Positions 33,626 to 44,066 of a stretch of 64,000 nucleotides of DNA are shown here, in pieces (the stretch's first letter is position 1; each line of letters opens with the position of its first letter). Source of the stretch: an uncultured Eubacteriales bacterium. Its GTDB lineage: Bacteria > Bacillota > Clostridia > Christensenellales > Aristaeellaceae. The notes under the pieces are model-generated. The model was not told the origin of the DNA and ran no database searches. It saw nothing but the letters and a program-made list of their open reading frames with translations. The stretch covers positions 186,001 through 250,000 of the forward strand of contig OMZY01000002.1 in the NCBI GenBank assembly GCA_900315675.1, given 5' to 3'. Position numbers and translations under genes: made by a program.

Positions 33626-33664
33626 ATTAATTCTGAATTCTGAATTATGAATTGTGAATTAATT
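33626..33664 (-). repeat. Heptad repeat at the trpC stop codon
   Basis: In coding orientation: AATTCAC AATTCAT AATTCAG AATTCAG AATTAAT, a clear 7-bp period. It supplies the last codons and the stop of trpC. An AT-rich EcoRI-like GAATTC occurs within it. Confidence 0.75.
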
Positions 33665-34430
33665 CCTGCAGCTTTGCTGCGGTGTCCTCCGCTCTCATGA
33701 GTGTTTCCCCAATCAGGGCAGCGTCCGCGCCGATCTGCCGCAGCCGCTGTACATCCTCCGGCGTTTTCACTCCGCTTTCCGCCACATAAACGCAGTCCGC
33801 GGGAATCCTGTCCCGCAGCCTTGCGGCGTTGCTGAAGTCTACGGAGAAATCCTTCAGATTCCGGTTGTTCACCCCGATGATCTTTGCCCCGGCAGAAACC
33901 GCTCTGCGGATTTCTTCCTCATCATGGGTCTCCACCAGCGCCGCGATGCCGAGTGCTTCGCATCTTTCAAGATACGCTTCCAGTGTTTTCGTGTCCAGCA
34001 GGGAGACAATCAGCAGTGCCGCGTTCGCGCCCATGACCCGTGCCTGATCCAGCTGGTAGGGGCTGACCGTGAAGTCTTTGCGAAGCATCGGCAGGCTCAC
34101 CCTGGCCCGGACTTCCCGGAAAATCTGATCTGACCCGAGAAAGTATTCCGGTTCGGTCAGGCAGGAAATGCAGTCTGCTCCGCCCTGCTCATAGGCTTCC
34201 GCGATTTTCAGGTAAGGAAAATCAGGGGAAATCAGGCCTTTGGAAGGCGATGCTTTCTTAATCTCGCAGATAAAGGAAATGCCCGGCTTCTTCAGAGCGG
34301 AAAGGAAAGCCTCGCCGTTTCCTTTTCCCAGTGCCTTTGCCTGCTCCCGCAGCTCCGCCTCCGGCACCTTCTCCTGCTCCGCCGCCACCCGTTTTCTGCT
34401 CAGTTCAGCCAGCTTATCCAGTATATTCAT
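33645..34430 (-). CDS. trpC: Indole-3-glycerol-phosphate synthase
   Basis: 261 residues, stand-alone (not fused to TrpF). Active-site segments: FICEIKKASPSKGLI (about 53-67), LRKDFTV (about 115-121) and GVNNRNLKDF (about 181-190). The last five residues, LIHNS, are encoded by the heptad repeat and are probably not functional. A GCAGC/GCTGC hairpin lies just before that. ATG at 34430; its upstream gap is filled by the hairpin array. Confidence 0.97.
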   Translation of the reverse strand: MNILDKLAELSRKRVAAEQEKVPEAELREQAKALGKGNGEAFLSALKKPGISFICEIKKASPSKGLISPDFPYLKIAEAYEQGGADCISCLTEPEYFLGSDQIFREVRARVSLPMLRKDFTVSPYQLDQARVMGANAALLIVSLLDTKTLEAYLERCEALGIAALVETHDEEEIRRAVSAGAKIIGVNNRNLKDFSVDFSNAARLRDRIPADCVYVAESGVKTPEDVQRLRQIGADAALIGETLMRAEDTAAKLQELIHNS

Positions 34431-34517
34431 CCAATGATCTCCTCATTCAGGCTACAGGATTCCCCGTGTCATTCCGACCAAAGCCGAAGGCGCAGTGGAG
34501 GAATCCCTTACTATCAT

Positions 34518-34643
34518 ATTGGGCGTAGCCCAATAATTCATATTCGGCGTCAGCCGAATAATTCATATTGACCGCAGGTCAATAATTCATATTTGACGAA
34601 GTCAAATAATTCATTCTTGAGAAACTTTTATAAGTTTCTCAAG
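34518..34643 (-). repeat. Hairpin array between trpD and trpC (four units plus a coding hairpin)
   Basis: Four small palindromes, each about 7-bp stem and 3-4-nt loop: 34518-34534 (ATTGGGC/GCCCAAT), 34542-34559 (ATTCGGC/GCCGAAT), 34567-34583 (ATTGACC/GGTCAAT) and 34591-34607 (ATTTGAC/GTCAAAT). They are separated by the identical heptamer AATTCAT (34535, 34560, 34584, 34608). The last heptamer contains the trpD stop codon. Immediately inside the trpD coding region is a fifth, longer palindrome, CTTGAGAAACTT/AAGTTTCTCAAG (34616-34643). Stems differ in sequence but keep the ATT...AAT ends. Confidence 0.92.
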
Positions 34644-35627
34644 CGTTTCTGTAGCCTTTCCTTCATCGATCAGCTTCGCCGCAAGCTTGATTCCCTCCGC
34701 CAGACTTTCAGCTTTCCCGCCGATGTACAGGGCCGCGCCTGCGTTCATCAGCACCGCATCCCGCTTCGGTCCCTTTTCGCCGGAAAGAATCGCTTTGGTG
34801 ATCTCCGCGTTTTCCGCAGGAGTCCCGCCCACCAGATCCTGCTTGGTGCAGCGCTTCAGGCCGAACTGCTCGGGCGTAATCACATAGTTCTTCATCCAGC
34901 CGTCCTTGAATTCACATACCGTGGTCGGCGCGCTCAGGGAGATTTCGTCCATCTTGTCCTGTCCGTAAACCACCATGCCCCGCTTCACTCCCAGGTTCAT
35001 CAGCACCTGCGCCAGGGGCTGTACCAGATAGTCGTCATACACGCCCAGCAGCTGCATGGAGGGATGTCCGGGGTTGGTCAGCGGTCCCAGGATATTGAAC
35101 ACGGTGCGGAAACCCAGTTCCCTGCGGATCGCGCCCACATATTTCATGGAGGTGTGATATTTCTGGGCAAAGAAGAAGCACATTCCTGCTTTATCCAGCA
35201 GTTCCCGGCACTTGTCCGGATCCTGGTCAATGTTCACGCCCAGTGCTTCCAGGCAGTCTGCCGTACCGCTCTTGCTGGAAGCTGCCCGGTTTCCGTGTTT
35301 GGCCACCCGCATGCCGCCGGCGGCAGCCACCAGGGCGGAAGTGGTGGAGATATTGAAACTGTGCGCATTGTCTCCGCCGGTACCGACGATTTCAAACAGG
35401 TCGTCTCCTGCTTCCACCCGGGTTGCCTTTTCCCGCATGGCTGTCGCGCAGCCGGCAATTTCATCTGTGGTTTCCGCCCGGGCGCTCTTGGTGGACAGCG
35501 CCGCCAGGAAAGCGGCGTTCTGGGTCGGGGTGGTTTCACCGCTCATGATTTCGTTCATTACGGTGTAGGCTTCTTCATAGGTCAGGTCTTCCTTGCTGAC
35601 AATTTTCACGATAGCTTCCTTAATCAT
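34611..35627 (-). CDS. trpD: Anthranilate phosphoribosyltransferase
   Basis: 338 residues, stand-alone. It carries the PRPP-binding [17 protein letters not shown] (about 80-96) and [15 protein letters not shown] (about 107-121). Its final residues, [10 protein letters not shown], are encoded inside a 12-bp-arm palindrome. The gene starts 31 bp after trpG with GGAGGATTG upstream. Confidence 0.97.
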
Positions 35628-39579: not shown

Positions 39580-39613
39580 ACATTCACCTTCAATTCGTTA
39601 AAGTCACTTTCAC

Positions 39614-39766
39614 ATTCGGCGTCAGCCGAATAATTCATATCTGCGAAGCAGATAATTCACATTGGCCGAAGGCCAATATTTCATATTGCCGAAGGCTATA
39701 ATTCATTCCTGGATTAACCAGGTTTTGCTCCTGGTTAATCCAGGACTTATCCCTGGCTGAGCCAGG
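39614..39766 (-). repeat. Hairpin array between gltB and gltD
   Basis: Four small palindromes: 39614-39631 (ATTCGGC/GCCGAAT, identical over 18 nt to a unit of the trpD/trpC array), 39639-39653 (ATCTGC/GCAGAT), 39661-39677 (ATTGGCC/GGCCAAT) and 39685-39699 (ATTGCC/GGCTAT, imperfect). Spacers are AATTCAT, AATTCAC, ATTTCAT and AATTCAT. Then a 16-bp-arm hairpin (39707-39722/39730-39745) sits 1 bp after the gltB stop codon, and a 6-bp palindrome CCTGGC/GCCAGG (39752-39766) lies within the last gltB codons. Confidence 0.92.
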
Positions 39767-42700
39767 CGAGGTATTCGTCGGAGATTACTGCCTTGAACTT
39801 CGGCAGATAATCGCTGAAGTGTTCCAGAATCTCTCTGGCTTTCTCAGAGCCTGTCGCCTTCACATGCATTTCCAGCAGCCGGTTCAGTTCATCCGCCTGC
39901 TGTGCGGAGACTTCATAAAGCTTCACATGTCCGGTGTTCAACCGGTTCTGAAGCTGGCCGTCCTCGTCCAGCACCCAGGCCACGCCGCCGCTCATGCCTG
40001 CCGCGAAGTTGTCGCCCACAGGACCCAGCACTGCAACCCGGCCGCCGGTCATATATTCGCATCCATGGTCTCCCACGCCTTCAACCACGGCCCATGCGCC
40101 GGAATTGCGCACTGCAAAACGCTCACCCGCCATACCGGCCACAAAGGCATAGCCGCTGGTCGCGCCGTACAGAGCCACGTTGCCGATCAGGGTGTCTTCC
40201 TTCTTCCAGATGCTGTCCGCGGGCGGGCATACCGCCAGCGTTCCGCCGGAAAGGCCTTTGCCCAGGTAGTCGTTTGCCACACCGTAAAGGGTGATCTCCT
40301 GTCCATGGGGCAGGAAGGCTCCGAAGGACTGACCGCCGCAGCCCTGGGCCTGGATATGCCGGTTGCCTTTCAGCATTGTGCCGAAAGCCCGGTCTGTTGT
40401 CATCAGATGCACATGATCCTGGTACAGCCGCACGTCCGCACGTTCAGCCAGGTGGAAATCAAACTTCGCCGCCGGCTGGAAGTGCGTGTTCCGGGCGAAT
40501 CCGGTCAGGTCACTCAGATCCATGGCTGCGTCGTCTTTCATCACCAGCAGGTCGCTGCGGCCCACCAGTTCATCCACAGTGCGCGCACCGAGCTTTGCCA
40601 TGATCTCCCGCATCTGCTCCGCAATAAAGAGCATGAAGCGTTCCACGTATTCCGGCTTGCCCTTGAAGCGCTTGCGCAGTTCAGGATTCTGGGTTGCAAT
40701 ACCGAAGGGGCAGGTACCCAGCTGGCAGACCCGCATCATCCGGCAGCCCATGGTAACCAGGGGCGCCGTCGCGAAGCCGAACTGTTCTGCACCCAGCAGC
40801 AATGCCACCATCACGTCATGTCCGGTCATCAGCTTACCGTCTGTTTCCAGCGTAACCGTCTGGCGCAGCCGGTTGCGGCAAAGCACCTGATGAGCTTCCG
40901 CCAGGCCGATCTCCCAGGGCAGGCCCGCATGATGCACGCTGCTCATAGGTGCGGCACCGGTACCGCCTTCACCGCCGGAAATCAGGATGCCGCCGGCGCC
41001 GGCCTTGGCCACGCCGCTGGCAATGGTACCCACACCGGCGGAAGACACCAGCTTCACGGTGATCTTCGCGTCCTCGTTGGCACACTGCAGGTCATAAATC
41101 AGTTCAGCCAGATCCTCGATGGAATAAATATCATGATGCGGCGGCGGGGAAATCAGGGAGATTCCCGGGGTGGAGCAGCGGGTCTTCGCCACGCTGTCGG
41201 TCACCTTCGCGCCGGGCAGGTGTCCGCCCTCGCCGGGCTTGGCGCCCTGCGCCATCTTGATCTGTATTTCTTTTGCTGAGAGCAGGTATTCCCGCGTCAC
41301 GCCAAAGCGGCCGGATGCCACCTGCTTGATGGCGGAGTTCAGGTCCGTTCCGAAGCGTTCCGGCAGTTCGCCGCCCTCGCCGCTGTTGGAACGTCCTCCC
41401 AGGTGGTTCATTGCCTTGGCCATGCACTCATGAGCTTCCTGGGAAATGGAACCGTAGCTCATAGCGCCGGTCCGGAAGCGCTTCACAATTTCGGATGCGG
41501 CTTCCACTTCCTCCAGCGGAACAGGACGGCAGGAATCGTAATTGAAGGAAAGCATGGAGCGGATGGTCCGCGGTCCTTCGTTCTCAATCCGCGCCGCATA
41601 TTTATCAAAGGCAGCCCGGTCATCCGTCCATACCGCCTGTTGCAGCAGATGGATGGTTTCCGGGGCATACAGATGTTCTTCTGCTGCCTCGCCTCTTCTG
41701 TACTTGTGCTTGCCTTCACTGACCAGTCCTTCTGCGCCGGCTGCGGCAAACGCGGCTTCATGATGATACCGGCTGTCTGCTTCAATCCGGTTCAGGTCTG
41801 TTCCGCCCAGGGAGCAGGGTGTATTGGTGAAATAGGTCTTAACCAGGCCCTGATCCAGACCCACAGCCTCAAACAGCTGGGCGCTCTGGTATGCCTGTAG
41901 TACGGATACACCCATCTTGGAAGCGATCTTCAGCACACCAGCGGTCAGCGCCTTGTTGTAATCCCGGATTGCTTCTTCCGGAGTCTTGTCAATCTGTCCA
42001 TCCGCGCAGAGGGCTCGTACGCAGGCATGAGCCAGGTACGGGTTTACCGCCCGGGCACCGAAGCCGATCAGCATGGCCAGCTGGTGCACGTCTCGGGGCT
42101 CACCGCTTTCAAGGATCACGGAAACCGCAGTACGCTTTTTCTTTCCGATCAGATGCTGTTCCAGGGCGGACACCGCCAGCAGCGAAGGAATCGCGATGGC
42201 GTCCGGTCCGACGCCCTGGTCAGACAGGATCAGGATATTGATATGGTCACGGCATGCCTGGTCGCAGACGGCAAAGAAATGTTCCAGTGCGTCCCGCAGG
42301 CTGCCTTTCTTATCATAGAGTAAGGAGACTGTGCGTACAGAGAAATCCGGATGATCCATCTCCCGAATCCGCTGCAGTTCCTCCTCGGTCAGTACCGGGG
42401 AGGGCAGCTCCAGCACGGCGCTGTTTCCCGCCTCCCGGGAAAGCAGGTTGCCGTCGTCGCCGACGTAGATGGAGCAGTCGGTCTTCACTTCTTCCCGCAG
42501 CGCGTCAATCGGCGGGTTGGTCACCTGTGCGAAACGCTGGCGGAAGTAGTCATACAAGGAAGGATGGGTTTTCGACAGCGCCGCCACCGGCACGTCCGCG
42601 CCCATGGAAACGATAGGTTCCGTGCCCTTCGCCGCCATCGGCAGTACGATGTCCTGCACGTCTTCCCATGTATAATGGAATGCCTTGCAGAGCTTTTCCC

Positions 42701-44066
42701 GCTCCGCTTCCGGCAGAATATCCTCTTTAACTTCAGCTGTTGGCAGGTCCTCCAGCCGGACCAGTTTCTGCATCCACTCCGTATAGGGATGCTCCTGGGC
42801 AAAGCGGGTCTTCAGGGCCTCGCTTTCCGTCAGCCGGCCTGTCTTCAGATCTGCTTCCAGCACGTCTCCGGCTTTCAGCTTCCAGCGCCGCAGAATATGG
42901 GCATTTTCTTCAAACAGCACGCCTGCCTCGGAGGTCAGGATCAACCGCCGGTCATCCGTCAGTGCGCAGCGCAGCGGGCGCAGGCCGTTCCGGTCCAGGG
43001 ACGCGCACACTGTGTCGCCGTCGGAATACAGGATTGCCGCGGGGCCGTCCCAGGGCTCCATCATTGTGGCATAGTAGCGGTACAGATCCCGCCAGGCTGT
43101 TTCTTTCTTCAGCCCCTGCCAGGGTTCCGGCAGCAGAATCATTCCGGCCAGCGGCAGCGGGAATCCGTTCATCGCCAGGAACTCCAGGGTATTATCCAGC
43201 ATCTGGCTGTCGCTTCCGTCCGGATCAACCACCGGCAGTACGCGCTTCATTTCCGCGCCCATCACGTCGGAACGCATGGTTTCTTCACGCGCCTTCATCC
43301 GGTCATGGTTGCCGCGGATGGTATTGATTTCCCCGTTATGCAGCAGCATCCGCTGGGGATGTGCCTTGCTCCAGGACGGGAAAGTATTGGTAGAAAAACG
43401 GGAGTGCACCATCGCCATACTGCTGGCATAGCGCACGTCCTGCAGATCGTCATAGAAAGAACGCAGCTGGTTCACCAGCATCATGCCCTTGTAGACGATC
43501 GTCCGGCTGGACAGGGAGCATACATATGCGTCCGTGTCCTGGTGTTCAAAAACCCGCCGTAATATAAAAAGCCGCCGGTCAAAGTCCTGACCGGCACCGG
43601 TCTCCTTCGGCCTTTTTAAAAAGCACTGTCGGATGCACGGCATCGTCCGCCGTGCTCCTGCGCCCAGCTGGGCCGGGTGGCAGGGTACCTCCCGCCACCC
43701 GAGCACCTGAATCCCCTCGGATTCCGCCAGCTGTTCAAAGATTCTTGCTGTATTCTGAGCTCCGACTTCATCCTCCGGCAGGAAGAACATACCCACGCCG
43801 TAATCTCCGGGGTTGCCCAGGGCGATTCCTTCTTCCCTGGCCCAGGCGGCAAACAGGGTATGGGGCAGCTGAGTCATAATGCCCACGCCGTCTCCGGTAG
43901 TTCCTTCCGCATCGCTGCCCGCGCGGTGCGCCAGGCGTTCCACAATACACAGTGCCTGATCCACCGTCCGGTGGGTTGCCTTCGCGTTCAGATCCACCAC
44001 GGCGCCGACGCCGCAGCTGTCATGTTCCAATTCTTTATGATAAAGAGGATACTGTCGGTCAGTCAT
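39747..44066 (-). CDS. gltB: Glutamate synthase large subunit
   Basis: 1439 residues. The start at 44066 (GGAGGGAG upstream) puts the nucleophile Cys at residue 18 in EHDSCGVGAVV, so a short propeptide is removed. The glutaminase domain (about 18-420) is followed by the central and FMN domains (SGGEGGTGAAPMSS, about 1000-1015). The [3Fe-4S] cysteines are in MGCRMMRVCQLGTCPFG, spaced C-x5-C-x4-C. A C-terminal beta-helix (GxxxxYGATSGYAFVAG) closes the protein. It makes two glutamates from glutamine and 2-oxoglutarate with GltD. Confidence 0.97.
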   Translation of the reverse strand: MTDRQYPLYHKELEHDSCGVGAVVDLNAKATHRTVDQALCIVERLAHRAGSDAEGTTGDGVGIMTQLPHTLFAAWAREEGIALGNPGDYGVGMFFLPEDEVGAQNTARIFEQLAESEGIQVLGWREVPCHPAQLGAGARRTMPCIRQCFLKRPKETGAGQDFDRRLFILRRVFEHQDTDAYVCSLSSRTIVYKGMMLVNQLRSFYDDLQDVRYASSMAMVHSRFSTNTFPSWSKAHPQRMLLHNGEINTIRGNHDRMKAREETMRSDVMGAEMKRVLPVVDPDGSDSQMLDNTLEFLAMNGFPLPLAGMILLPEPWQGLKKETAWRDLYRYYATMMEPWDGPAAILYSDGDTVCASLDRNGLRPLRCALTDDRRLILTSEAGVLFEENAHILRRWKLKAGDVLEADLKTGRLTESEALKTRFAQEHPYTEWMQKLVRLEDLPTAEVKEDILPEAEREKLCKAFHYTWEDVQDIVLPMAAKGTEPIVSMGADVPVAALSKTHPSLYDYFRQRFAQVTNPPIDALREEVKTDCSIYVGDDGNLLSREAGNSAVLELPSPVLTEEELQRIREMDHPDFSVRTVSLLYDKKGSLRDALEHFFAVCDQACRDHINILILSDQGVGPDAIAIPSLLAVSALEQHLIGKKKRTAVSVILESGEPRDVHQLAMLIGFGARAVNPYLAHACVRALCADGQIDKTPEEAIRDYNKALTAGVLKIASKMGVSVLQAYQSAQLFEAVGLDQGLVKTYFTNTPCSLGGTDLNRIEADSRYHHEAAFAAAGAEGLVSEGKHKYRRGEAAEEHLYAPETIHLLQQAVWTDDRAAFDKYAARIENEGPRTIRSMLSFNYDSCRPVPLEEVEAASEIVKRFRTGAMSYGSISQEAHECMAKAMNHLGGRSNSGEGGELPERFGTDLNSAIKQVASGRFGVTREYLLSAKEIQIKMAQGAKPGEGGHLPGAKVTDSVAKTRCSTPGISLISPPPHHDIYSIEDLAELIYDLQCANEDAKITVKLVSSAGVGTIASGVAKAGAGGILISGGEGGTGAAPMSSVHHAGLPWEIGLAEAHQVLCRNRLRQTVTLETDGKLMTGHDVMVALLLGAEQFGFATAPLVTMGCRMMRVCQLGTCPFGIATQNPELRKRFKGKPEYVERFMLFIAEQMREIMAKLGARTVDELVGRSDLLVMKDDAAMDLSDLTGFARNTHFQPAAKFDFHLAERADVRLYQDHVHLMTTDRAFGTMLKGNRHIQAQGCGGQSFGAFLPHGQEITLYGVANDYLGKGLSGGTLAVCPPADSIWKKEDTLIGNVALYGATSGYAFVAGMAGERFAVRNSGAWAVVEGVGDHGCEYMTGGRVAVLGPVGDNFAAGMSGGVAWVLDEDGQLQNRLNTGHVKLYEVSAQQADELNRLLEMHVKATGSEKAREILEHFSDYLPKFKAVISDEYLAWLSQG

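What the first reader, a model, noticed from the sequence alone, without database searches (positions are those of the whole stretch)
34518..34643. Array of four different mini-hairpins separated by an invariant AATTCAT heptamer (trpD/trpC)
Seen directly: four palindromes of 17-18 nt follow each other at a fixed rhythm, each with a different stem but the same ATT...AAT ends and a 3-4-nt loop, with the identical 7-nt spacer AATTCAT. The array starts at the trpD stop codon, and a fifth 12-bp-arm palindrome lies in the final trpD codons. Stem sequences differ but pairing is kept, so the structure and the spacer are under selection, not the stem sequence. It is not a CRISPR, BIME or known riboswitch. 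It could be a modular mRNA 3'-end stabiliser, a set of RNase or protein binding sites, or the remains of repeated template-switch events.
Basis: seen in the sequence. Interest (0 to 1): 0.88.

Follow-up and report, generated by a model that had tools for sequence, protein, structure and literature searches.

The report
Hairpin arrays related to Gut-1
The four mini-hairpins after trpD are one of dozens of copies of a scattered hairpin element, a divergent relative of a little-studied element called Gut-1, and its sequence behaves as if the hairpins form in single-stranded DNA rather than in the neighbouring messenger RNA.

Summary
The trpD/trpC array (34518-34643) is one of about 40 found in stretches of this genome; another lies between gltB- and gltD-like genes in the window. 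The usual unit is a leader, four mini-hairpins joined by A[AT]TTCA[TC], and often a longer local hairpin at the stop codon of a gene on the opposite strand. Stems differ, but orthologous hairpins of relatives change on both sides and stay paired (G000-G002: 23 two-sided versus 3 one-sided changes). A covariance model trained only on relatives finds the trpD array at 98.6 bits and Rfam Gut-1 (RF01706) loci in other families of the class. So this is a divergent dialect of Gut-1, an annotated RNA of unknown function; the window copies fall below Rfam's threshold. New here: loop types and G.T mismatches mark the strand opposite to Rfam's, and to the flanking mRNA, as the folding strand; 147 of 163 arrays lie on the C-rich strand; six places share one array core. 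I favour a DNA-level, replication-linked hairpin repeat over an mRNA stabiliser. The mechanism is inferred and no mobilising enzyme was identified.

The parts
34513..34615 (+). whole four-hairpin module in the trpD/trpC gap
   Evidence: model R1, trained on relatives only: 98.6 bits, E 2.1e-15, full length 1-102
34518..34534 (+). mini-hairpin 1, loop GTA
34535..34541 (+). linker AATTCAT
34542..34559 (+). mini-hairpin 2, loop GTCA
34560..34566 (+). linker AATTCAT
34567..34583 (+). mini-hairpin 3, loop GCA
34584..34590 (+). linker AATTCAT
34591..34607 (+). mini-hairpin 4, loop GAA; absent from the orthologous array of G002
34608..34614 (+). last linker; its complement supplies the trpD stop codon TGA (34611-34613)
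34616..34643 (.). terminal perfect hairpin (12-bp arms, 4-nt loop) made of the last trpD codons; same 28 letters in G002; imperfect, by eye, in array-less G035 and G001
34611..35627 (-). trpD, gene whose 3' end the module abuts
   Evidence: TIGR01245, 415.5 bits, cut-off 199
33645..34430 (-). trpC, next gene of the operon, downstream of the module
   Evidence: NF001377, 320 bits, cut-off 260
39609..39707 (+). second module of the same family, between gltB-like and gltD-like genes
   Evidence: R1 84.9 bits, E 5.7e-13; Gut-1 33.9 bits on the minus strand, 39627-39708, below Rfam's threshold of 50
39708..39744 (.). terminal long palindrome of the second module, two bases away from the end (39747) of the gltB-like gene 39747-44066 on the minus strand
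   Evidence: sequence, gene call, Pfam glutamate synthase domains

Best explanation
The array is a divergent linker dialect (AATTCAT instead of ATTTCAC) of the element known in Rfam as Gut-1. It belongs to a dispersed, multi-copy module, usually of four hairpins, that sits mostly at gene 3' ends. SHOWN by computation: shared ancestry with Gut-1, modularity, maintenance of pairing through two-sided changes, folding-strand asymmetry of the mini-hairpins, orientation relative to GC skew, and one array core present at six places. INFERRED: the hairpins act, or are maintained, as single-stranded DNA at the replication fork. The module strand is the C-rich strand (by the usual skew rule, recalled, the leading-strand template with the same sequence as the nascent lagging strand), and its cGNAg / cGNNAg loops are those of very stable DNA mini-hairpins. 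A broken arm would be restored by copying the other arm (hairpin template switching), which would explain perfect palindromes, two-sided changes and orientation together. The module then behaves as a REP-like selfish or tolerated repeat; any effect on trpD/trpC expression would be secondary. My confidence by layer: relative of Gut-1 0.9; DNA strand as the folding molecule 0.6; fork-linked maintenance by template switching 0.35.
For: Ancestry: R1, built from 16 arrays of G035 and G001 (none from this genome), scores the trpD array 98.6 bits, 41 places in 38 stretches of this genome and all 25 class-level loci given to it (48 hits; 24 distinct places, L426 and L484 being one). It finds 0 at E up to 1 in 26 control stretches of 230 kb. 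Rfam Gut-1 is above its cut-off in 11 of 11 class-level loci given and in 7 of 45 genomes of the genus, with about 60 hits each in four of them at E up to 1. Structure: alignment A1 has two-sided change at 24 of 28 pairs, 92.3% of cells paired, 0 of 500 shuffles as high in covariation. Orthologues with both flanks matched, G000-G002: 13 arrays, 249 pairs, 23 two-sided, 3 one-sided, against free expectations of 5.9 and 64.8. Folding strand: cGNAg 118 v 8 and cGNNAg 57 v 1 against the complementary forms in 404 unique mini-hairpins; 34 v 0 and 15 v 0 in 85 class-level ones; GNRA is 21 of 57 GNNA loops, not the RNA preference. G.T 24 v A.C 7 on the module strand (p 0.003), 8 v 1 in class-level ones (p 0.04). 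Orientation: module on the C-rich strand in 147 of 163 arrays, and in 30 of 40 when the right-hand gene is on the same strand; 141 of 151 single modules. Core shared by six arrays with unrelated right flanks. Template switching making palindromes perfect is described for E. coli (PMC7202029, passages).
Against: The trpD array itself gives no Gut-1 hit at E up to 10 and the second array only 33.9 of 50 bits. No transcript, ssDNA or protein data were available. Terminal hairpins do not show the strand asymmetry: GNA 10 v TNC 7, G.T 15 v A.C 10; cTTTg 16 v cAAAg 14 shows none either; folding energies of the two strands are nearly equal. dnaA lies at 1.307 Mb in G002 and 1.424 Mb in G035, not at a skew switch, so fork direction rests on GC skew and gene orientation only. 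Skew and gene orientation are correlated, and gene ends clearly matter too (103 of 109 arrays near an opposite-strand gene are on the C-rich strand). The E. coli passages speak of a strand bias and cite a leading-strand-specific case, which fits or not depending on whether the template or the nascent strand folds. The shared core could be local duplication: five of its six copies lie within about 20 kb on one contig and three share left-flank sequence. Template switching does not explain why linkers change in concert (G002: 37 arrays all T, 17 all A, 1 mixed at position 2) nor why four hairpins is the mode.
Confidence: 0.5

Rival explanations
1. It is a structured RNA, as Rfam lists Gut-1: either a free-standing small RNA or a 3'-UTR structure that protects or processes mRNA, with pairing selected at the RNA level.
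For: Compensatory changes. Many modules abut a gene end on the opposite strand: right gene opposite and within 120 nt in 32 of 40 (G000), 44 of 61 (G002), 21 of 37 (G035) and 12 of 23 (G001). A terminal hairpin of 10 bp or more is found at 47 of 98 array ends within 60 nt of such a gene v 70 of 1929 searches beside array-less stop codons. In class-level loci the module often follows an A6-hairpin-T6 terminator, several of them behind tRNA genes. Weinberg et al. 2010 list Gut-1 among likely noncoding RNAs (PMC2864571, passages).
Against: Folding strand is opposite to the flanking mRNA and to Rfam's strand. Loops do not follow the RNA GNRA preference. Orientation follows GC skew even beside same-strand genes, 30 of 40. 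In many class-level loci the module lies beyond a terminator. RNA of the opposite strand would need its own promoter; the leader consensus shows none that I recognise, but no promoter scan was run.
Confidence: 0.25
2. It is a REP/REPIN-like element mobilised in trans by a Y1 (RAYT or IS200-type) transposase acting on single-stranded hairpins.
For: Dispersed hairpin units with a conserved short motif at the hairpin foot; pairs on opposite strands at 23 of 25 class-level loci resemble REPINs. Y1 genes exist here (3 in G000, 4 in G002). One array lies about 1 kb from a Y1 gene in G001. A core is shared by six places.
Against: Y1 genes are about as common without Gut-1: 42 of 64 Gut-1 genomes v 192 of 327 others (hand count from the lists). 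Genomes with 8-11 Gut-1 hits and no Y1 hit exist (G156, G303, G425). No array lies in the 8-19-kb stretches around the three Y1 genes of G000 and the four of G002, nor in 19 of 20 shorter Y1 loci, many of them from array-less species. No conserved stem. The module strand is C-rich, whereas IS200/IS605 uses the lagging-strand template (PMC6006769, passages), by the skew rule the other strand.
Confidence: 0.15
3. Purely mutational by-product: short palindromes and AT-rich linkers are generated and kept perfect by slippage and template switching, with no function and no recognition factor.
For: Two-sided changes, unit losses (hp4 in the G002 trp array; hp3 in two copies of one core), loop differences in 63 of 120 compared hairpins, and no array between trpD and trpC in 11 other genomes of the genus that were compared there.
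Against: Linkers recur across families, four hairpins is the mode in four genomes, and modules recur at gene ends. A neutral process alone would not fix these.
Confidence: 0.1

Closest known systems
Gut-1 RNA (Rfam RF01706; Weinberg et al. 2010)
   Same: Hairpins separated by 7-nt linkers, GUGAAAU on Rfam's strand = ATTTCAC here; ends in CAAUGAAAU next to a long hairpin; Rfam's model finds arrays of the genus and the genus model R1 finds class-level Gut-1 loci.
   Different: Window copies use AATTCAT/AUGAAUU linkers, four hairpins instead of the three modelled, highly variable stems, scores below the gathering threshold; mostly single modules (151 of 163) where class-level loci are mostly pairs.
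REP / BIME / REPIN elements with RAYT transposases
   Same: Multi-copy, extragenic, palindromic, gene 3' ends, short conserved tag at the hairpin foot, inverted pairs in class-level loci.
   Different: No conserved stem, no GTAG or CGTC tag, four different hairpins per unit, no Y1 association seen.
Quasipalindrome template-switch hot spots
   Same: Both arms change together and become perfectly complementary; a plausible maintenance mechanism.
   Different: Those are single sites of mutation, not a conserved multi-unit module with fixed linkers.
Bidirectional intrinsic terminators
   Same: Many class-level modules are preceded by an A6-hairpin-T6 terminator; the terminal hairpin here sits at the stop codon.
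   Different: The terminal hairpin of the trpD array has no U-tract on either strand, and the array lies inside an operon.

Membership tests
Gut-1 RNA (RF01706) | Covariance-model score at or above the Rfam gathering score (50 bits) | tested here: not met
   trpD array no hit at E up to 10; second array 33.9 bits; best in this genome 49.2
Gut-1 RNA (RF01706) | Three hairpins joined by GUGAAAU linkers and 5' CAAUGAAAU | tested here: inconclusive
   Architecture met with a fourth hairpin; linkers read AUGAAUU on that strand (2 of 7 letters differ) and the end reads GAAUGAAUU
Gut-1 RNA (RF01706) | Common ancestry with accepted members | tested here: met
   R1 from relatives, in whose genomes many arrays pass Rfam's score, finds the trpD array at 98.6 bits and 25 of 25 class-level loci at 27-70 bits, 0 in controls; linker dialects alternate at orthologous sites
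Gut-1 RNA (RF01706) | Expressed as a noncoding RNA | not testable with these tools
   No expression data; strand asymmetry argues for the opposite strand
REP/BIME/REPIN | Conserved palindrome with GTAG or CGTC tag | tested here: not met
   404 different mini-hairpins among the arrays held; the letters at the hairpin foot are TTCAY
REP/BIME/REPIN | Linked RAYT gene flanked by the element | tested here: not met
   No arrays around the seven Y1 genes of G000 and G002 or at 19 of 20 Y1 loci; no clear genome-level association
CRISPR array | Constant repeats of 20-50 nt with unrelated non-palindromic spacers | tested here: not met
   Constant part is 7 nt and the variable parts are palindromes; cas genes were not searched for
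Intrinsic terminator | G+C-rich hairpin followed by a U-tract | tested here: not met
   After the hairpin 34616-34643 come AATGAATTAT on the minus strand and CGTTTCTGTA on the plus strand

The most novel reading that the evidence does not exclude
Gut-1 is not primarily an RNA. It is a class-wide single-stranded-DNA element: a module of about four hairpins with DNA-type loops on the strand opposite to the annotated one, oriented with the replication fork, copied as a unit without a Y1 transposase, and kept palindromic by hairpin template switching or by an unknown hairpin-binding factor that reads the linker (hence concerted linker dialects).
Probability: 0.35. Interest if true: 0.8.

Novelty: new variant of a known kind. 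Interest (0 to 1): 0.6.

Why it matters
In the library I could search, the accession RF01706 occurs in one paper, which says Gut-1 is found only in environmental sequences (passages). Here it is a multi-copy genomic element with hits in 64 of 391 sampled genomes of the class (38 over Rfam's cut-off), with its probable folding strand reversed and its anatomy worked out. If the DNA reading holds, it is a natural experiment on how perfect palindromes are maintained at replication forks, and loci now annotated as small RNA genes would have to be relabelled.

Tried and rejected
Chance or simple low complexity: rejected by unfiltered segment counts and shuffles and by pattern controls. Rfam scan of the window at curated thresholds: nothing; the link to Gut-1 came only through class-level cousins. 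Y1/RAYT as driver: not supported. Functional class of neighbouring genes: 30 right-hand genes tested, 28 with a Pfam hit, no theme. Folding energies of the two strands of the trpD array: nearly equal as RNA (-50.9 and -50.4) and as DNA (-37.2 and -36.0), not informative. Viral contigs with two further patterns: 0 hits and 11 hits not followed up. Paper searches (listings seen) showed no description of these arrays; a guess at the genus (Aristaeella) was not tested and is not claimed, and the name of the class is not given by any search.

Caveats of method: my array finder accepts at most one mismatch per hairpin and asks for certain letters before the first hairpin, so broken hairpins, one-sided changes and odd leaders are under-counted; arrays with odd linkers are counted with too few hairpins. 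The 16 rows of A1 were picked for similar hairpin lengths from arrays so found, which favours pairing. G002, G035 and G001 were sampled around pattern hits only. The gene caller is a home-made codon-usage script. For the skew count, G002 and G035 arrays were assigned by chromosome position (0.85-2.62 Mb as one half) and the others by the skew of the fetched stretch itself. Rows dropped: hairpins of different length or not more than half alike were not aligned (G000-G002: 25 aligned of 50 and 44), plus 4 terminal hairpins added, 86 hairpin pairs of unequal length and 2 dissimilar ones were set aside; arrays with one hairpin were left out; identical hairpins were counted once. In one search at least ten of the 34 matching genomes show only non-palindromic, probably chance matches.

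Full report
WHAT IS THERE. The window carries a trp operon on the minus strand: trpE, trpG, trpD, trpC and trpB pass NCBIfam cut-offs, and the trpF-like gene has its best match below cut-off. In the trpD/trpC gap the plus strand reads four perfect 17-18-nt hairpins, each followed by AATTCAT, and then a 28-nt perfect hairpin formed by the last trpD codons. The last linker provides the trpD stop codon. A second array of the same build lies at 39609-39744 between genes for glutamate synthase large and small subunits.

A FAMILY IN THE GENOME. The linker core ATAATTCAYAT occurs 85 times in the 3.6-Mb genome against 2 for the reversed control. In 38 fetched stretches my finder lists 42 arrays, 40 with two or more hairpins. 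Without any pairing filter, 109 of 122 segments between consecutive linkers are palindromic, 97 of them perfect; shuffled letters give 0.2 on average. In 20 stretches of relative G002 the figures are 102 of 117 and 95 perfect.

ANATOMY. The recurrent unit is a leader with consensus AGTAACTwTCA[CT] (taken from the 126 of 140 arrays with three or more hairpins that end in CA[CT]), then hairpins of the form AT-stem-loop-stem-AT, linkers A[AT]TTCA[TC], and often a long local hairpin. Four hairpins is the mode in the four genomes examined: 27 of 42 arrays (G000), 40 of 68 (G002), 25 of 38 (G035), 18 of 23 (G001). The right-hand gene is on the opposite strand and within 120 nt in 32 of 40, 44 of 61, 21 of 37 and 12 of 23 arrays of two or more hairpins. 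A terminal hairpin of 10 bp or more is present at 47 of 98 array ends within 60 nt of such a gene, against 70 of 1929 searches beside array-less stop codons. The 30 right-hand genes tested have no common theme; 28 have a Pfam family, among them GroEL, GroES, Hsp70, a class II tRNA synthetase, a uridine kinase-type protein, MutS domain, SufBD and glutamate synthase.

LINKERS CHANGE IN CONCERT. This genome mostly uses AATTCAT; G035 and G001 use ATTTCA[CT]; G002 uses both, but one dialect per array: at position 2, 37 arrays are all T, 17 all A and 1 mixed; in G000, 22 are all A and 15 mixed. Orthologous sites can carry different dialects in different species.

PAIRING IS KEPT WHILE STEMS CHANGE. 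With orthology demanded on both flanks, G000-G002 gives 13 arrays and 249 stem pairs: 23 two-sided changes that keep pairing, 3 one-sided and 1 two-sided without pairing, where the flank divergence of 15.4% would give about 65 one-sided and 6 two-sided if the arms were free. The closer pair G001-G035 (7.0%) gives 5 two-sided and 4 one-sided in 270 pairs, expectations 1.3 and 35. A looser count over all species pairs gave 68 two-sided and 14 one-sided. Alignment A1 of 16 modules of G035 and G001 shows two-sided change at 24 of 28 pairs, 92.3% of cells paired, and 0 of 500 shuffles reaching the covariation score; sliding the partners by 1-3 columns lowers the score from 0.585 to at most 0.148. 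The finder's tolerance of one mismatch biases all these counts towards paired stems.

THE trpD SITE IN RELATIVES. G002 has the same array with three hairpins (the fourth missing) and the same terminal hairpin. The other genomes of the genus compared there (G001, G022, G005, G035, G009, G003, G006, G010, G030, G011, G033) have none; G001 and G022 keep what looks like a remnant hairpin GCCCGAAGGGC. By eye, the same trpD codons form only an imperfect palindrome in G035 and G001, so the perfect terminal hairpin seems to go with the array.

ONE CORE AT SIX PLACES. Six arrays of this genome (five on contig C36, one on C18) share the core from CATTC to AATTCAT; their right flanks are unrelated, and three of them also share left-flank sequence. 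Two have lost one hairpin from linker to linker. So the core has been copied, by transposition or by local duplication, while the terminal hairpin is local.

RELATION TO GUT-1. A stringent two-gap pattern is found in 7 of 45 genomes of the genus and, among 391 genomes of the class, only in this genome and two others with one hit each. One of these, G283 in another family, led to a simpler pattern (ATTTCACA...TATTTCACA) with matches in 34 of 391 genomes, against four genomes with a control match; at least ten of the 34 look like chance. The good loci are arrays of hairpins joined by ATTTCAC, often as pairs on opposite strands. Rfam calls Gut-1, RF01706, above threshold in 11 of 11 such loci given. 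The Rfam consensus is CAaUGAAAU-hairpin-GUGAAAU-hairpin-GUGAAAU-hairpin-UGUGAAAU, the reverse complement of the build described here. In the genus, Gut-1 matches at E up to 1 occur in 10 of 45 genomes (7 over cut-off): 62 in G035, 61 in G022, 60 in G002, 58 in G001, 15 in G005 and 20 in this genome, best 49.2 bits; named control genomes ring in 3 of 14, none over cut-off. In the class 64 of 391 genomes have matches, 38 over cut-off, with at most 12 per genome because few candidates are scored; 1 of 14 control genomes rings, not over cut-off.

BRIDGING TEST. Model R1, built from A1, finds two places in the window at E up to 10: the trpD array at 98.6 bits and the gltB/gltD array at 84.9 bits. 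It finds 41 places in the 38 stretches of this genome, hits in all 25 class-level loci given to it, 23 of them on both strands (L426 and L484 are one place), and nothing at E up to 1 in 26 control stretches of 230 kb. The trpD array itself is not recognised by Rfam's model and the other only at 33.9 bits. I therefore call the window arrays a divergent dialect of Gut-1 by ancestry, not an accepted member by Rfam's rule.

WHICH STRAND FOLDS. On the ATTTCAC/AATTCAT strand, 128 of 225 triloops of mini-hairpins are GNA and 8 are the complementary TNC; G.T mismatches outnumber A.C 24 to 7 (p 0.003). Terminal hairpins do not show this: GNA 10 v TNC 7, G.T 15 v A.C 10. With the closing pair, cGNAg 118 v 8 and cGNNAg 57 v 1; among the latter only 21 of 57 are GNRA; cTTTg and cAAAg are 16 and 14. 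Class-level loci repeat the asymmetry: cGNAg 34 v 0, cGNNAg 15 v 0, G.T 8 v A.C 1 (p 0.04). A DNA mini-hairpin CGCGAAGCG is given a melting point of 88.5 C in a paper that uses 'extraordinarily stable' for DNA or RNA hairpins (PMC10527192, passages); that d(cGNNAg) is a stable DNA tetraloop and that RNA prefers GNRA are recalled (a search, brought no paper that I used). The folding strand is thus opposite to Rfam's strand and, where the right-hand gene is on the opposite strand, to its mRNA.

ORIENTATION. In G002 the GC skew of the fetched stretches is positive up to 0.54 Mb, negative from 1.0 to 2.58 Mb and positive again from 2.77 Mb; in G035 it is positive from 0.33 to 0.75 Mb (one array-free stretch at 0.39 Mb is negative), negative from 1.19 to 2.50 Mb and positive from 2.93 Mb. 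Array strand changes with it, with a few exceptions. Over four genomes plus two G022 arrays, 147 of 163 arrays are on the C-rich strand; with the right-hand gene on the same strand it is still 30 of 40. Of 151 single modules, 141 are on the C-rich strand; the 12 members of inverted pairs split 6 to 6. Genes in the array stretches of G002 and G035 are on the G-rich strand in 295 of 448 cases, a weaker bias. By the usual rule (recalled) the C-rich strand is the leading-strand template, but dnaA does not lie at a skew switch, so fork direction is an inference.

MECHANISM. The facts that need explaining together are perfect but changeable palindromes, DNA-type loops on one strand, orientation with skew, a copied core and concerted linkers. 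I consider a DNA-level hairpin element most likely, with template switching at the fork keeping the arms identical; an E. coli paper describes quasipalindromes being made perfect in this way, with a strand bias (PMC7202029, passages). The driver of copying is unknown: Y1 genes are present but no array was seen around those of G000 and G002, one lies near an array in G001, and there is no clear association across the class (42 of 64 v 192 of 327, hand count). The RNA rival remains open because nothing here measures transcripts.

LITERATURE. Weinberg et al. [quoted passage not shown] RF01706 as a term occurs in one paper of the library. A 2021 survey of structured RNAs in human microbiomes does not contain the name in its main text (PMC8040213, term search). 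I saw no description of these arrays, their copy number or the strand question in the listings; most subscription journals and all bioRxiv preprints are outside that library.

Noticed in passing
window 34457-34506: A 50-nt element (GGATTCC...TGTCATTCCGACC...GGAGGAATCC) stands between the array and trpC; G001 and G022 carry a version of it at the same place without the array, and short matches to it occur at other loci of relatives. A second, separate dispersed repeat.
   Followed up: partly
G000 C48:670880-670987 (L199): A module lies directly upstream of dnaK on the same strand; its terminal hairpin TGAAACC-GGA-GGTTTCA contains a GGAGG ribosome-binding-like site just before the ATG. The G002 orthologue does not show that hairpin.
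   Followed up: no
G000 C48:665830-667768 (L199): Modules sit after groEL and between groES and groEL; the same two sites carry modules in G002.
   Followed up: partly
many stretches of G000, e.g. L195, L200, L219, L228: Runs of AATTCATAATTCAT(AATTCAC) with no hairpins, on both strands, use the same heptamer and could be collapsed modules or a separate microsatellite.
   Followed up: no
L410, L426, L434, L437, L349 and similar loci in other families: Gut-1 modules follow A6-hairpin-T6 terminators, several behind tRNA genes, and a second module usually lies on the opposite strand beside the first; the outer stem of the first can pair locally or with a distal copy.
   Followed up: partly
G002 C1 about 1.028-1.093 Mb: Twenty-three array detections fall within about 65 kb, all on one strand; why this region is so rich is unexplained.
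   Followed up: no
G000 C10:70094, C34:66214, C36:83590: Three RAYT-like Y1 transposase genes with unknown cognate repeats.
   Followed up: partly
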